A DNA stretch of 64,000 nt from Tanypteryx hageni. Its lineage: Eukaryota > Arthropoda > Insecta > Odonata > Petaluridae. The translations under genes and the position numbers were made by a program. Numbering within the stretch: the first letter of the stretch is position 1; each line of letters opens with the position of its first letter. This document shows positions 16,485-57,570 of this stretch, piece by piece. The notes under the pieces are model-generated. The model was given only the letters and a program-made list of their open reading frames with translations. It did no database searches and was not told the origin of the DNA. Location of the stretch: assembly GCA_028673005.1 (NCBI GenBank), contig CM054115.1, positions 7,981,501-8,045,500 on the forward strand. Reading direction: 5' to 3'.

Positions 16485-16663
16485 ATGAGAATGCTGCACC
16501 CTTTCTTGTGCCATTCCAAGGAGAAGCTATGGTTAGAGGCAATGGAGTGGACTTCGTTGACCTGAGGCCGGTCTTGGACTCATGTAGGGCATCCCTAAAT
16601 GGTTCTGGTGTGTACTACACTGCCGAGGCTGCGGAGACGGTAGCGCGTTGGGTGTTTAAGCAT
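16485..16663 (+). pseudogene. LINE2 ORF1 C-terminus (part 1 of a split LINE)
   Basis: The frame reads VPFQGEAMVRGNGVDFVDL and ends ARWVFKH, then runs into the Polinton-type terminus at 16664. It resembles the SGNH/esterase-like C-terminus of ORF1 in CR1-type LINEs; the usual His region reads VYYT. The flank aagcat is repeated as gagcat (in reverse orientation) at 35390-35395. Joining across one copy of that duplication continues RWVFKH with ASVF and a stop, a natural ORF1 end. The rest of this LINE lies at 35389-33526 (minus) and 56346-57570 (plus). Confidence rests mainly on this continuity. Confidence 0.65.
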
Positions 16664-17134
16664 AGTAGGGTGATTTTAGCGGTTCTGGCACAGATCAAGG
16701 CCAAGCTAAAGGTCAAGGTCACCCTATTATGCAGTCAGAACACGTGTACTCAAGGACACCTGCAGCCAACTTCCGTCCTCCGACTTAAAGGCCGCAGCAC
16801 ATCTGGCCAACTCAAGTCTATGGCAAAACTCCAAGGACACTGTATTGCGCAGAATCGGCACGTGCACTCAATGCCGCAGCACACCTGGCAAACTCAAGAC
16901 CATGGCAAAACTCCAAGGACACTGCATTGCGCAGAATCGGCACGTGTGCTCAATGACGCAGCACACTTGGCCAACTCAAGGCTATGGCAAAACTCCAAGG
17001 ATACTGTATTGCGCAGTAAGGATACGGCTACTCGAGGCCACAGCTCAACTTAGCGGTTTTGGCACAGGTCAAGGCCAAGCTAAAGGTCAATGTCAACCTA
17101 TTATGCAGTCAGAACACGTGTAATCAAGATATTT
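16664..17134 (+). repeat. Polinton Q left terminus with 82-bp tandem repeats
   Basis: Begins agtagggtgattttagcgg, so it starts with the 5'-AG expected for Polinton ends, directly after aagcat. It has three parts: a 70-bp lead (ttagcggttctggcacag ... cagtcagaacacgtgt), three 82-bp tandem units (16809-17049), and a second direct copy of the lead ending aatcaagatattt. The same structure with six units is at 35396-36110. After undoing the inversion the two lie as inverted repeats at the two ends of one Polinton, so I call them its terminal inverted repeats. Confidence 0.75.
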
Positions 17135-17170
17135 AACGACTGAAATACGAAAAGAGCAATTTTTTTTGAT

Positions 17171-53544: not shown

Positions 53545-54178
53545 GTAACCCGAAAAGAGTGTCGGAACGGGGATTCGAACACTAGACCTTTGACTCTCAA
53601 TATCTTAGTTCTACCAACTGAGCTATTTGGATCTCGATATTAAAAAGACGATCTCTTCGTATTTCGGTATTCAAATGTTCTCAACAACAGTGGTGCCACA
53701 TAATTTAATATCTAATAACGCACTGCGGTCGTCATTTGCTGCAGTGCAGACAACCCATCCTTCAACTTTACATCATTCATATTTTCGGCACGAGTGCGCA
53801 TGTGCAATTTATTTGTTTTTGGCAACACCGCATTCGATATATTGAAACTCACTTGACAACACTGCTTTTCGAGCGGCATTTGTTTTTAGTTCCTTCGCTT
53901 ATACAATTAACCAATCGAGAAATTTTAACTCAATTTGAATCAGCTGCCTCGGATGCTCCAGATTGCGTATTACGATGTTCTTCTGTTTAGATATATTGAT
54001 TTGGCTACATCGAAATCGATATATCGATCTTCACTTGACAACACTGCTTTTCGAGCGGCATTTGTTTTCAGTTCCAACTTTCTACGAGTAGTGGCTCCAT
54101 AGGTAGGTCACGTGACAGGATGTGCCATCATAAATCCAATATGGCGGACTGCGCCAGGATAGGCATTTCCCTACGACT
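53545..54178 (+). repeat. Polinton P left terminal repeat, outer piece
   Basis: Continues the repeat begun at 47190. It includes the second arm of a 12-bp palindrome, the tRNA-like segment, ttcaaatgttctcaacaa, aacgcactgcggtcgtcat, a direct duplication of about 180 bp (cacttgacaacactgctttt at 53849 and 54031), and gccaggataggcatttccc, ending act at 54178. The next six bases, gcccat, are the reverse complement of the flank of the right repeat. Confidence 0.85.
53562..53635 (-). repeat. tRNA-like sequence in Polinton terminus
   Basis: Minus strand: tccaaatagctcagttggta (D-arm) and gttcgaatccccgttccga (T-arm). The anticodon arm around attgagagtcaaagg pairs poorly and the acceptor stem has mismatches. 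Best preserved T-arm of the three copies. Confidence 0.7.
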
Positions 54179-56345
54179 GCCCATCAATTTCTTCCCCGGA
54201 TGTAAGCAATAAATTGTTAAGAATTGTGAAACTTTCAAATTCTCAGCGGTCAAGGCGGCTACGACACAGCATCTTCGTACGTCCTGGAAATTAAAGACGG
54301 TGACATCTTTTCCTTGCAAGGCATGGTTCAAACCGTTCGAGATGATAAAAATATCAGCTAGATATGCCAGTTGGGCAAGCCGCGAGTCTGAGAGGTGAAA
54401 GACTTGACATTCACTATCGTACAGGTAGATTTTGACCTCTCGCAATTCAAAGAGGCTGGTGAGTACTTTGCCCCGCCACAAACAGTGAATAAATTGAATA
54501 AATGTCGCGTGTGTTCGTTCCTTGTTTCTTCAAATAGAATTTTTAAAATGCGTGCATTTAAAGGGTGGCCTTCGATAAAAATTACAATTCTTACTACCTC
54601 ATCTAGAACTGTTTTAAGGATGACTGACATATTCTTCACAGTAAGTTGTTCACGATAATTGCTGCAGTGCGTTGCCGCTGCCAATAGTGCAACTGCATTG
54701 ACAAGTGCGGATAAGTCCTTCCTTCTGCCAGTAATTGCCGAAGCGCCGTCAGTACAAATACTGACACATCCTGTCCAATCCACTTTATTATATTCAATAA
54801 AATCTAAATAATGAAGTCAGGCTCAACTTTGTGTAATTTACTCATAATGAAAGGATAACTTTGTAGTTTCCACAACTACAAACTACAAAGTTATGCTTTC
54901 ATTATTTCAATAAATCGTTCATTAATTTGAAAATGGCTTCTGTTGTCTTGGTAAGTGAGGATCGGTAGAACGAAAATTCCTAATGTACTTTTACTGAATA
55001 TTCATACCTGATATATACCAGAATGTTAGCATCGCCAACAATATCAGTGGACTCGTCAAGTTGAAGCAAGAAGTTCAGACTCTGACGCAGGCACGGTAAC
55101 AGCTGGTATTCCAAATCTTCAGACAGGCATGTTATTTGGCGTTGAGTAGTATAATTGGAAAGGGGAACCGTCTCAACAGCATTCTTTGCCTTTTCCCTAA
55201 GCATGATGCTTGCCATTTTTTTTGCAGCACGTTTGATCAAGTTTTCTGCCACAGTATGATCTTTCCCAGTCTTTGCCACCAGTAGTGATACCCTGTATGA
55301 AGCCTCTGTAGCGTTATGATTGTCCCCACCAATAGTAATGCAATGCATAGTGTTCTTATAGTGTATTAGTTCTTTGCATTTCTTCTGAGAAACTCCGAGG
55401 CTTTACAATGTATTCCTTGTGTTTAGATTCAAAATGACGATTCAGAGTTTCATAACACTAGACAATGCAGTTGGGGAACTTCTTTATCTCCCATCCAGAA
55501 AACTTCAATTTTTTAAGAAGCTACTCTTTTTACTTTCTTCCCCCTGTTCTGACCCTTCTTTTTGTTGTCTTGTTGATCACTGTTCTTTGCAATACTTTCG
55601 CCAAGAATTCATTCACTGTTCTCGTCTTCGTAATTAGGTAAGTCATTTAAATTGAACATACCTTCTACTTCATTGTACACTACAATTATCTAGTTATTTC
55701 CATCAGAAGCACACTGTCGCTGTTGTGGTTCACAAATCACTTCACTAGCATTGTTACCACTATTTGGCACCTTGTTCACATTCACGCTATCACAATACTG
55801 TTAATGCAAATATGCATCACTACCAACTGTAGGGTTAAGCAAACAATCCACAACAAATAAAATTGATAATGATAAAGCTAAACTAACAGTAATTTATAAT
55901 TAAAAAGCCAGAATAGTAGCAATTGAAAACTACAACCAACGCAAAACAACATTGATGATGCACTGATAACAAAGCGTCCTTCCCGAAATTGCGGGAATTC
56001 AAAATGTCTGCGTGTGCGCATGCGCAGGAGCTTTTTAACTTTGCCAATCGTTGCGTGGCAGCCGGAAATCTTAGTAGAATACTGAATTAGATATCTCAGT
56101 AACCTCGAGTAACCCGCTAATTTTAATTTATGAATACCATATTTTTGTAACCCTTAATAACTCACTTAGTAGGTGTAGTACTTAGTAGCCCTTAGTCGTA
56201 CGTAAAATTGAAAGTCTATGGAATTGCGCGTCATTCACCCGTAAGAACCGAAGAAAAGATTTGCATTTTTGGATCAGTTTGCGGCCCATCAGGAGAGTTC
56301 TTGCGACCCAACAGTGGGCCGTGGACTATACTTTGAGAATCACTG
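54179..56345 (-). pseudogene. hAT3 N-terminal half (split by Polinton P)
   Basis: Minus-strand hAT transposase. Frame 55348-54980: TEASYRVSLLVAKTGKDHT, IMLREKAKNAVETVPLSN and LNFLLQLDESTDIVGDAN (first catalytic Asp). Frame 54783-54358: VSICTDGASAITGRRKDL, RIVIFIEGHPLNARILKILF. Frame 54481-54128: KVLTSLFELR to HPGKKLMG at the Polinton edge. A fold-back repeat (54800-54905) interrupts it. The 5' terminus ends ctttgagaatcactg at 56345 in plus orientation, followed by gcttagcg. The C-terminal half is at 32858-33525. Confidence 0.87.
54800..54905. repeat. Small fold-back repeat inside hAT3
   Basis: taactttgtagtttccac and its complement form arms at about 54855-54894, with a left flank tcaggctcaac.ttgtg.aatttactcataat shared with 7477-7523. 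It lacks the hammerhead-like loop found in the copy at 7.5 kb. Confidence 0.65.
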
Positions 56346-57570
56346 GCTTAGCGGATGCCAGCACGGATTTCAGAGAGGTAGATCATGCAAAACACAGCTC
56401 GGCTTGTTCGTGGATTATTTGTTCAGATGCGGAGAGAAAAATACTCAGGTCAATGCCATATTCATTGACTTCAGAAAGACGTTTGATAAAGTATCTCATA
56501 AGAAAATAATTGCAAAGTTAGGACAATATGGCATCAATCCAAAAATTGTCACTTTGGTGAGAGATTTCCACTCGAATAGAGAACAGAAAACTGTCATCGA
56601 TGGGAATTACTCGTCCCCCGTTAAAGTTGCGTCGGGTGTTCCTCAGGGAAGTATATTAGGCCCTCTACTTTTCTTAATCTATGTGAATGATATCTGCTAC
56701 GTAGTTCGTAGTAAAATTAGAATTTTTGCCAATGATACCGTTCTATATAAAGAGATAAAATACCAGGAGGACCATCAGTCACTGCGTGAAGATTTAAGAG
56801 CCATTTCAACGTGGTGCAAAGAATGGCAAACTGAAATTAATTACACTAAATTTGCCGCAGTTACGTTCAGGAAAAGTAAGAATATAGAAGTAGGTTTTGA
56901 GTATAAAATAGATGGAATAAATATTTAAGCAGCCGAGTATGTTAAATATTTAGGAGTAACCATTTGTCGAGGTCTTTCGTGGGACATGCACATTCGTCGA
57001 GTTATAGGCGCGGCCAACAAGAAACTGGCTTTCATAGGTAGAATAGTACGGAACACTACAGAAAAATTACGTGAAACATGTTATTTATCATTGGTTAGAT
57101 CACAAGTGGAATACGCCTCAAATATATGGGATCCGTAGGAGAAGGGACATATAATTCAATTAGAAAGATTGCAGCACATAGCAACAAGATTCGTAAAAGA
57201 AAAATACGAACATAAGGAAAGCGTCATCTAGTTATTGAGGGATTTGAACTAGGTGCCACTAGAGGATCGTCAATTGAACTCAAGTTTGCGGCTTCTGGAG
57301 AAATATAGATCGGAATGTCTAAAATACGAGTTTGTAGGAATAATTGAAGCACCAACGTATATAGATAGGAACGATCGTGACGATAATACACGTGAGATCG
57401 ATTGTAGGACGGAGCGTTATCTAGGCTCGTTCTTTTCGAGGACAATACGAGATCACAATAGAAAATTTCAACCGGCGATAGACAATCTTTAGGTAGGTTA
57501 GGGTGCATTGCACCCCCTGTCACCCACCAATTAGGTGAATTGTAGGGTAACATGTAGATGTAGATATAAA
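56346..57570 (+). pseudogene. LINE2 3' part: RT core to 3' tail
   Basis: RT of the split LINE continues from the hAT duplication: GCQHGFQRGRSCKTQLG, IFIDFRKTFDKVSHKK (motif A), GVPQGSILGPLLFLIYVNDI (motif B) and IFANDTVLY (FAND for the catalytic YADD or YVDD, so inactive). After a stop at 56926 the thumb reads YVKYLGVTI and RSQVEYASNIWDP. The 3' end is marked by gtagggtaacatgtagatgtagata (57541-57567), a short tgtaga tail typical of CR1-type LINEs. Confidence 0.88.

What the first reader, a model, noticed from the sequence alone, without database searches (positions are those of the whole stretch)
16658..56353. Three nested sets of target duplications are all in inverted register: a 22-kb inversion between two Polintons
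Polinton P ends at 32851 and 54178 are followed by atgggc and gcccat. hAT3 ends at 33525 and 56345 are followed by cgctaagc and gcttagcg. Polinton Q ends at 16664 and 35396 are preceded by aagcat and atgctc (5 of 6 as reverse complement). In a simple insertion these would be direct repeats. Inverting the part between the near-identical blocks makes all three direct at once. The simplest cause is recombination between two inverted Polintons, exchanging their halves.
Basis: seen in the sequence. Interest (0 to 1): 0.95.

Follow-up and report, generated by a model that had tools for sequence, protein, structure and literature searches.

The report
Inversion between two virus-like transposons

Summary
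The one unmatched base in Q's duplication is explained: 6 of 6 fetched copies of the target repeat read GAGCAT.

The own genome gives an independent ruler. One uninterrupted copy of the host LINE matches the window as three successive blocks, the middle one inverted. Flanks joined as the inversion demands run through in 38 of 40, 40 of 40 and 37 of 43 listed matches. One present-order join, as control, runs through in 0 of 40.

In the other copies read, Q-type ends go with one kind of polymerase half and P-type ends with another; in the window they are swapped. Two tracts (453 and 395 bp) have no substitution between the two elements and share 35 variants seen in none of 30 other copies, as gene conversion would leave.

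Best explanation: ectopic recombination between inverted Polintons, as for Galileo in Drosophila. An assembly error is not excluded, although the window has no gap. Known mechanism, new kind of element; moderate interest.

The parts
16534..16663 (+). 5' part of the host LINE copy, left of the left chimeric Polinton
   Evidence: LINE copy L062 304-449 matches 16534-16679 at 90%, the last 16 bases running into Q
16658..16663 (+). Q target duplication, left copy AAGCAT (changed from GAGCAT)
16664..32851 (.). Left chimeric Polinton L: Q-type capsid-side end and P-type polymerase-side half
16664..17135 (+). Q-type terminal repeat with 82-bp tandem units
17302..24579 (-). Interior of L homologous, in inverted order, to 47237-38064 (genes on the minus strand)
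18612..19064 (.). Tract A: no substitution between L and R (one indel), 16 shared private variants; candidate conversion/crossover tract
19198..19592 (.). Tract B: 395 bp identical between L and R, 19 shared private variants; candidate conversion/crossover tract
20501..21157 (-). Integrase pieces; most of this stretch (20214-21070) is missing from R at 41619/41620
32431..32851 (-). P-type terminal repeat, polymerase side
32852..32857 (+). P target duplication copy ATGGGC (direct with GCCCAT at 54179 only after inversion)
32852..33525 (+). hAT3 3' part: end of the transposase-like frame cut at 54179, in opposite orientation
33526..33533 (+). hAT3 8-bp target duplication, CGCTAAGC
33526..35395 (-). 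Middle part of the host LINE (endonuclease region), inverted relative to the rest of the LINE
35390..35395 (-). Q target duplication, right copy (GAGCAT read on the minus strand)
35396..54178 (.). Right chimeric Polinton R: Q-type polymerase-side half and P-type capsid-side half
35396..36111 (+). Q-type terminal repeat, polymerase side
41619..43407 (+). Near-identical inverted partner of 18428-20213 (97.7%)
47275..53539 (-). Young gypsy-type LTR element inside the P half, LTRs 47275-47860 and 52939-53539, direct CGGG duplication: internal control
53595..54178 (-). P-type terminal repeat, capsid side
54179..54184 (+). P target duplication copy GCCCAT
54179..56345 (-). hAT3 main part (transposase-like N-terminal and middle pieces)
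56346..56353 (+). hAT3 8-bp target duplication, GCTTAGCG
56346..57571 (+). 3' part of the host LINE (reverse transcriptase), original orientation

Best explanation
A LINE copy received two insertions 1.87 kb apart: a Polinton (Q) near its 5' end and a hAT-type transposon (hAT3) between its endonuclease and reverse-transcriptase regions. A second Polinton (P) then landed in hAT3, in the opposite direction to Q. Recombination between the shared interiors of Q and P, within about 17.1-21.8 kb (left) and the matching 47.2-40.9 kb (right), crossed over and flipped the roughly 23 kb between them. This left two chimeric Polintons with exchanged ends and exchanged target duplications. Gene conversion made at least two tracts in the shared block alike. 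Shown, for the assembled sequence: the nested order, the inverted register, the chimeric make-up and the shared-private tracts. Inferred: that one crossover made the flip, that the tracts belong to the same event, and that the assembly is right.
For: Termini and duplications. Target site single in 12 of 12 fetched empty copies (6 LINE copies at the Q site, 3 at the hAT3 site, 3 hAT copies), GAGCAT in 6 of 6 at the Q site. Present-order control for the left element: 0 of 40. LINE copy L062 gives 16534-16679 (+) / 35395-33526 (-) / 56346-57571 (+); leaving out 16 bases by which the first block runs into Q, the overlaps are 6 and 8 bp, the lengths of the duplications. hAT copies L018-L020 give 54179 (-) next to 32852 (+) with 6-bp overlap, 3 of 3. 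LINE and hAT frames continue across the junctions in frame (read by eye). Polymerase region of P-type relatives L057-L059: main blocks 89-93% to L, 71-79% to R; one of these copies (C669) also has a P-type capsid-side end (L065). Copies with a Q-type end: at 21947-22146, R to L060/L061 97/96%, L to the same 71/70%; L061 is 96.6% to R 38233-38935 and 70.6% to P-type L058 there. Tracts: 35 shared variants absent from 30 other copies and no L/R substitution in 848 bp, against 8 and 81 in 17547-18427. No N in the window.
Against: No reads are available, so misassembly inside the 1.8-kb near-identical block is not excluded. Between about 18.1 and 21.7 kb the P-end and Q-end copies are alike (91-100% by 200-bp window against one P-type copy), and at least two of the 28 copies fetched with the middle block (L023, L024) have Q-type ends, so family markers cannot place the crossover there. 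The mosaic of identical and differing patches is more complex than one clean crossover. The P terminal repeats differ by 14.4%, as much as or more than hAT copies differ from hAT3 (6-14%) although P lies inside hAT3; this asks for repeats unequal at insertion or fast-changing. Only two Q-end copies were read on the polymerase side, one of them for about 500 bp. The right-hand present-order control was not run.
Confidence: 0.85

Rival explanations
1. Assembly error: the assembler crossed between the two near-identical inverted blocks, and the chromosome still has the ordinary order.
For: The blocks are 97.7% identical over 1.8 kb, and wrongly placed reads during polishing could also make identical tracts. 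No read evidence was available.
Against: The window has no N and lies in a 206-Mb sequence, so it is not a scaffolding flip at gaps. The block is short beside ordinary long reads (inference; the read type is unknown) and carries differences inside it. No second, un-flipped copy was seen: the next best match to the left boundary 16600-17400 is 94%, and to the P flanks 92%.
Confidence: 0.1
2. Aberrant transposition (hybrid-element insertion): one Q end and one P end moved together and re-inserted, giving an inversion.
For: Also yields inverted elements and a similar outcome (PMC2775673, section 10 part 1).
Against: That section says that the flanking copies should then be identical, or that deletions or duplications appear. 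Here L and R differ by 5-14% at 17547-18546 and 17-32% at 21747-22746, and the LINE and hAT lose and gain nothing at the three junctions beyond the duplications. The Q and P ends are unlike.
Confidence: 0.03
3. No inversion: two Polintons that were already chimeric before insertion inserted independently, and the duplications match by chance.
For: Q-end copies and P-type copies are 94-98% alike on the capsid side, so lineages have probably recombined before.
Against: Three duplications match in inverted register, and the target repeats are contiguous only in the crossed pairing.
Confidence: 0.01
4. Inversion by template switching during break repair within the shared block instead of a crossover.
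For: The patchy mosaic of identical and differing stretches would fit repeated switching.
Against: Gene conversion with crossover explains the same tracts more simply; the final sequence does not separate the two.
Confidence: 0.1

Closest known systems
Galileo-mediated inversion 2z3 of Drosophila buzzatii (PMC2775673; passages, section 10 part 1)
   Same: Two copies of one transposon in opposite orientation at the breakpoints, exchanged target duplications, both copies chimeric, recombination placed inside the element, nested insertions with ordinary direct duplications.
   Different: Galileo is a P-superfamily transposon, and non-inverted chromosomes were sequenced there. Here the elements are Polinton-like with two end types, the flip is about 23 kb, and the un-flipped order is inferred from other copies of the target repeats.
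Polinton/Maverick elements
   Same: Integrase with rve and chromo domains and an endonuclease-VII-bearing long ORF in relatives, 6-bp target duplications, terminal inverted repeats starting AGT.
   Different: The window copies are broken; polymerase, ATPase and protease matches are weak or absent in Pfam.
hAT and LINE elements (host repeats)
   Same: hAT3 has 8-bp duplications and CAGTG ends; the LINE has endonuclease and reverse-transcriptase domains.
   Different: They serve as the ruler; nothing indicates that they took part in the exchange.

Membership tests
Inversion by ectopic recombination between transposon copies | Two homologous copies in opposite orientation at the two breakpoints | tested here: met
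   Inverted homologous blocks 17302-24579 / 47237-38064
Inversion by ectopic recombination between transposon copies | Target duplications exchanged between the copies | tested here: met
Inversion by ectopic recombination between transposon copies | Both copies chimeric against other copies | tested here: met
   few copies read at both ends
Inversion by ectopic recombination between transposon copies | No deletion or duplication of host sequence at the breakpoints | tested here: met
   LINE and hAT blocks abut with overlaps explained by the 6- and 8-bp duplications
Inversion by ectopic recombination between transposon copies | Un-inverted chromosome seen in another individual or species | not testable with these tools
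   One assembly only, and it has no held relatives
Polinton/Maverick | Retrovirus-like integrase (rve), often with a chromo domain (recalled) | tested here: met
   Relative L041: rve 9.3e-15, Chromo 1.5e-07; window piece rve 2e-07, 31.7 bits against cut-off 32.6
Polinton/Maverick | Protein-primed type B DNA polymerase | tested here: inconclusive
   Window ORF 38400-39257: DNA_pol_B_2 0.068 only; ORF 24061-25089: Endonuclease_7 1.6e-05. Relative L059 1032-aa ORF: Endonuclease_7 6.4e-05, no polymerase family up to 0.1. Polymerase-like motifs were recognised by eye, from recall
Polinton/Maverick | Packaging ATPase, adenovirus-type protease, capsid proteins | tested here: inconclusive
   Pox_A32 0.0017 and Peptidase_C5 0.06, both below cut-off, in relatives; no capsid family hit; one relative's ORF has no PDB match up to 0.1
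Polinton/Maverick | 6-bp target duplication and long terminal inverted repeats | tested here: met
hAT | 8-bp target duplication and CAGTG-type ends | tested here: met
hAT | hAT transposase | tested here: inconclusive
   No hAT family in Pfam for five pieces up to E = 1; likeness seen by eye only, from recall

The most novel reading that the evidence does not exclude
Polintons integrated in a chromosome recombine with one another in place, by conversion and crossing over, and this both rearranges the chromosome and makes new chimeric Polintons. In this genome copies with P-type and Q-type ends already share a capsid-side half at 94-98% while their polymerase halves are only about 71-79% alike, with a sharp border near 21.7-21.9 kb, so swapping of halves may be a regular route by which these virus-like elements evolve in modules.
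Probability: 0.15. Interest if true: 0.6.

Novelty: new member of a known kind. Interest (0 to 1): 0.42.

Why it matters
If the assembly is right, it is an unusually complete, self-documenting case of transposon-mediated inversion. Nested repeats in one LINE copy record the order of events, the exchange and likely conversion tracts, so the original order can be inferred without a second species. It adds Polintons, which have virus-like gene content, to the elements that can reshape chromosomes by ectopic recombination, and shows recombination producing chimeric Polintons in a genome. What was identified in the flipped segment is repeat sequence, so no effect on the organism is expected (inference).

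Tried and rejected
Rejected: simple insertion of two Polintons in the present order (left-element control join contiguous in 0 of 40); hybrid-element transposition (copies not identical, no host sequence lost); chance matching of duplications.

A tblastn of the same piece in phages found nothing. Four literature searches failed, so the statement on print rests on the listings and passages of one paper. An inverted pair of P copies on C669 was looked at as a second example; the capsid-side flanks of the two copies mirror each other, no terminus was matched by the pattern used, and no usable duplications came out. The impression that L024 is another chimera was dropped: Q-end copies generally have a P-like middle. 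A first window-wise comparison used copies in mixed orientation and is void; one search replaced it. In one search the windows before 17590 are misaligned and not used. L054, fetched for a polymerase-side end, gave no match to the window. A search for more Q-type polymerase copies did not complete (see below). Placing the crossover more finely inside 18.1-21.7 kb failed because the families are alike there.
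Full report
What was checked. Two ends of type Q (AGTARGGTGATTTTAGCGG) both point right, at 16664 and 35396. Two ends of type P both point left, at 32851 and 54178. hAT-type ends close at 33525 and 56345. Each pair of target duplications matches only if one copy is reverse-complemented: 5 of 6, 6 of 6 and 8 of 8 letters. A gypsy LTR element lying wholly on one side of the exchange (47275-53539) has an ordinary direct CGGG duplication, so the inverted register is not a general property of the window.

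The ruler. The own genome is held (1.68 Gb, 1022 contigs; the window is C4:7981501-8045500). It is unnamed and I did not identify the organism. Flanks paired as the inversion model demands were joined and searched; each search scores only its best 40 candidates. For Q, 38 of 40 matches run through the junction in one piece; the other two are the window's own halves, on opposite strands. For hAT3, 40 of 40 run through. For P, 37 of 43 rows run through; the other six are the window's two halves, three pieces of one broken copy and one extra piece of a counted copy. A join made for the present order (left Polinton as a simple insertion) runs through in 0 of 40; the matching control for the right Polinton was not run. 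Q and hAT3 sit in the same LINE family, and in copies found by both searches the two sites lie about 1620 bp apart, query start to query start (C4:5791412 and 5793032; C5:121205503 and 121207125), as expected from the window. One uninterrupted LINE copy, L062, matches the window as 16534-16679 (+), 35395-33526 (-), 56346-57571 (+) at 90-92%; the first block runs 16 bases into Q, and without these the overlaps are 6 and 8 bp. hAT copies L018-L020 place 54179 next to 32852 in opposite window orientation with 6-bp overlap, 3 of 3, although L018 is itself rearranged further out. The 12 fetched empty copies carry one target copy each, and at the Q site 6 of 6 read GAGCAT, so Q's left duplication has changed.

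Reading frames. The hAT-like frame cut at 54179 on the minus strand (..KKLMG) continues at 32852 on the plus strand (MGRLLKTF..), sharing the MG of the duplication. The LINE frame ending ..SPLLLS at 33527 on the minus strand continues as LSGCQHGF.. at 56347 on the plus strand. These joins were read by eye; RVT_1 on the right piece begins at profile position 41, as expected. No hAT family was found by Pfam, so that name rests on ends, duplications and recall.

Chimeric elements. L (16664-32851) and R (35396-54178) share an interior in inverted order, 62-100% identical by window from 17590 on. Twenty-eight other copies of the middle block were fetched (27 distinct sequences), mostly 98-99% alike. 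Ends were read for some of them. P-type capsid-side ends: L051 and L052, and L053 without the outermost stretch. P-type polymerase-side ends: L055 and L056. Both C669 copies have P-type capsid-side ends (L064, L065). At least two of the 28 (L023, L024) instead have Q-type ends about 5 kb away (coordinates). In the polymerase region, L057-L059 are 89-93% identical to L in their main blocks (short pieces 85-86%) and 71-79% to R. Copies with Q-type ends were followed inward in two cases (L002 to L060, L007 to L061). L061 is 92-96% like R in five 200-bp windows from 21747 (79% over the last 67 columns) and 67-80% like L; L060 is 92 and 97% like R in two windows and 87% in a third partial one, then stops aligning, and 71-84% like L. 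L061 is also 96.6% like R at 38233-38935, where it is 70.6% like the P-type copy L058. So in the copies read, Q ends go with the polymerase half now in R, and P ends with the one now in L.

Where they crossed. Between about 18.1 and 21.7 kb Q-end copies are 91-100% like one P-type copy by window, so the end types and the polymerase side bound the crossover only to about 17.1-21.8 kb of L. In the middle block L is 98% to R and 92-94% to each of the 38 other scored matches; R is 95-96% to the eight others compared. Two tracts, 18612-19064 and 19198-19592, have no substitution between L and R (one indel in the first) and hold 16 and 19 variants shared by L and R and absent from all other aligned copies with a letter there (29 or 30 of 30). 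In 17547-18427 there are 8 such variants and 81 differences. Runs of 19 and 16 shared sites did not occur in 20,000 shuffles of the site labels; tract limits were chosen after seeing the data. Gene conversion between L and R would leave this, and the crossover most likely lies in or beside these tracts. At the LTR divergence of the gypsy element (4 of 585) about 5.8 differences would be expected in 848 bp, against none, so conversion seems younger than that insertion, assuming equal rates.

Assembly. The window has no N and lies in a 206-Mb sequence, so a scaffolding flip at gaps inside the window is excluded. No second copy of the left boundary above 94% or of the P flanks above 92% was listed, so no un-flipped haplotype was seen. 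Reads were not available; a misjoin in the near-identical block remains possible.

Results that do not fit neatly. The P terminal repeats are 14.4% apart and the Q repeats 6.2%, while hAT copies are 6-14% from hAT3 and the LINE copy 8.5-10.5% from its parts. P is inside hAT3 and should not be older than it. P-type ends of two different pairs of copies are 94.5% and 98.8% alike, so unequal repeats at insertion, or fast change, must be assumed for this P.

Polinton identity. In relatives, ORFs as they stand give rve (9.3e-15) with a chromo domain (1.5e-07), endonuclease VII in a 1032-aa ORF (6.4e-05, just under its cut-off; 1.6e-05, above it, in window ORF 24061-25089), a BIR domain (1.6e-17), and weak Pox_A32 and C5-protease matches. 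The type B polymerase itself was not confirmed by Pfam. The name is therefore probable and not proven by a polymerase match; 'capsid side' and 'polymerase half' are labels from recall. The inversion argument does not depend on them.

Comparison. The Galileo inversion 2z3 of Drosophila buzzatii was concluded from the same set of facts: opposite orientation, exchanged duplications, chimeric copies (PMC2775673; passages, section 10 part 1). That section also gives the test that separates the rival hybrid-insertion model, which fails here because L and R differ. In the listings (15 of 327, 12 of 140 and 12 of 151 papers shown) and (2 of 2) I saw no title or abstract start on a Polinton-mediated inversion. 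One listed paper was opened for passages; there Polintons appear as remnants, and the inversion it reports is tied to retrotransposon insertions (PMC12910113). Four further searches failed, so absence in print is not established.

Verdict. Observation confirmed; interpretation supported; a well-documented new member of a known kind of event, with Polinton-like elements as the substrate.

Noticed in passing
L 17545/17547 against R 44306-46996; R 41619/41620 against L 20214-21070: Each chimera has a large gap relative to the other: L lacks about 2.7 kb on the capsid side, and R lacks about 0.86 kb covering most of the integrase pieces.
   Followed up: partly
L053:850-1617 (-) and window 46380-47224, 62113-62894: The Polinton family carries a BIR (inhibitor-of-apoptosis) domain ORF near its capsid-side end; a 65% relic of the same sequence lies at 62113-62894 in the window, outside the finding.
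   Followed up: partly
L coordinates 21.65-21.95 kb: Copies with P-type and Q-type ends are 94-98% alike on the capsid side, but the polymerase sides are 71-79% alike, with a sharp border: probably an older module swap between lineages.
   Followed up: partly
25235-30723: About 5.5 kb between two stretches that lie about 1.5 kb apart in relative L057, including a gypsy-like protease/RT piece (no LTR pair listed) and a hAT-like fragment near 29.9-30.2 kb (by eye).
   Followed up: no
G000:C912:541544/631258 and 1294843/1384636; C669:370643/389295: Inverted pairs of copies of the middle block; on C912 the pair recurs 753 kb further on, and on C669 the flanks of the two capsid-side ends mirror each other: large duplications or assembly effects.
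   Followed up: partly
8606-8823; 24963-25072; 31402-31598: Local repeats: a 109-bp tandem pair, a long AT dinucleotide run inside the polymerase-region ORF, and a 99-bp tandem pair.
   Followed up: no
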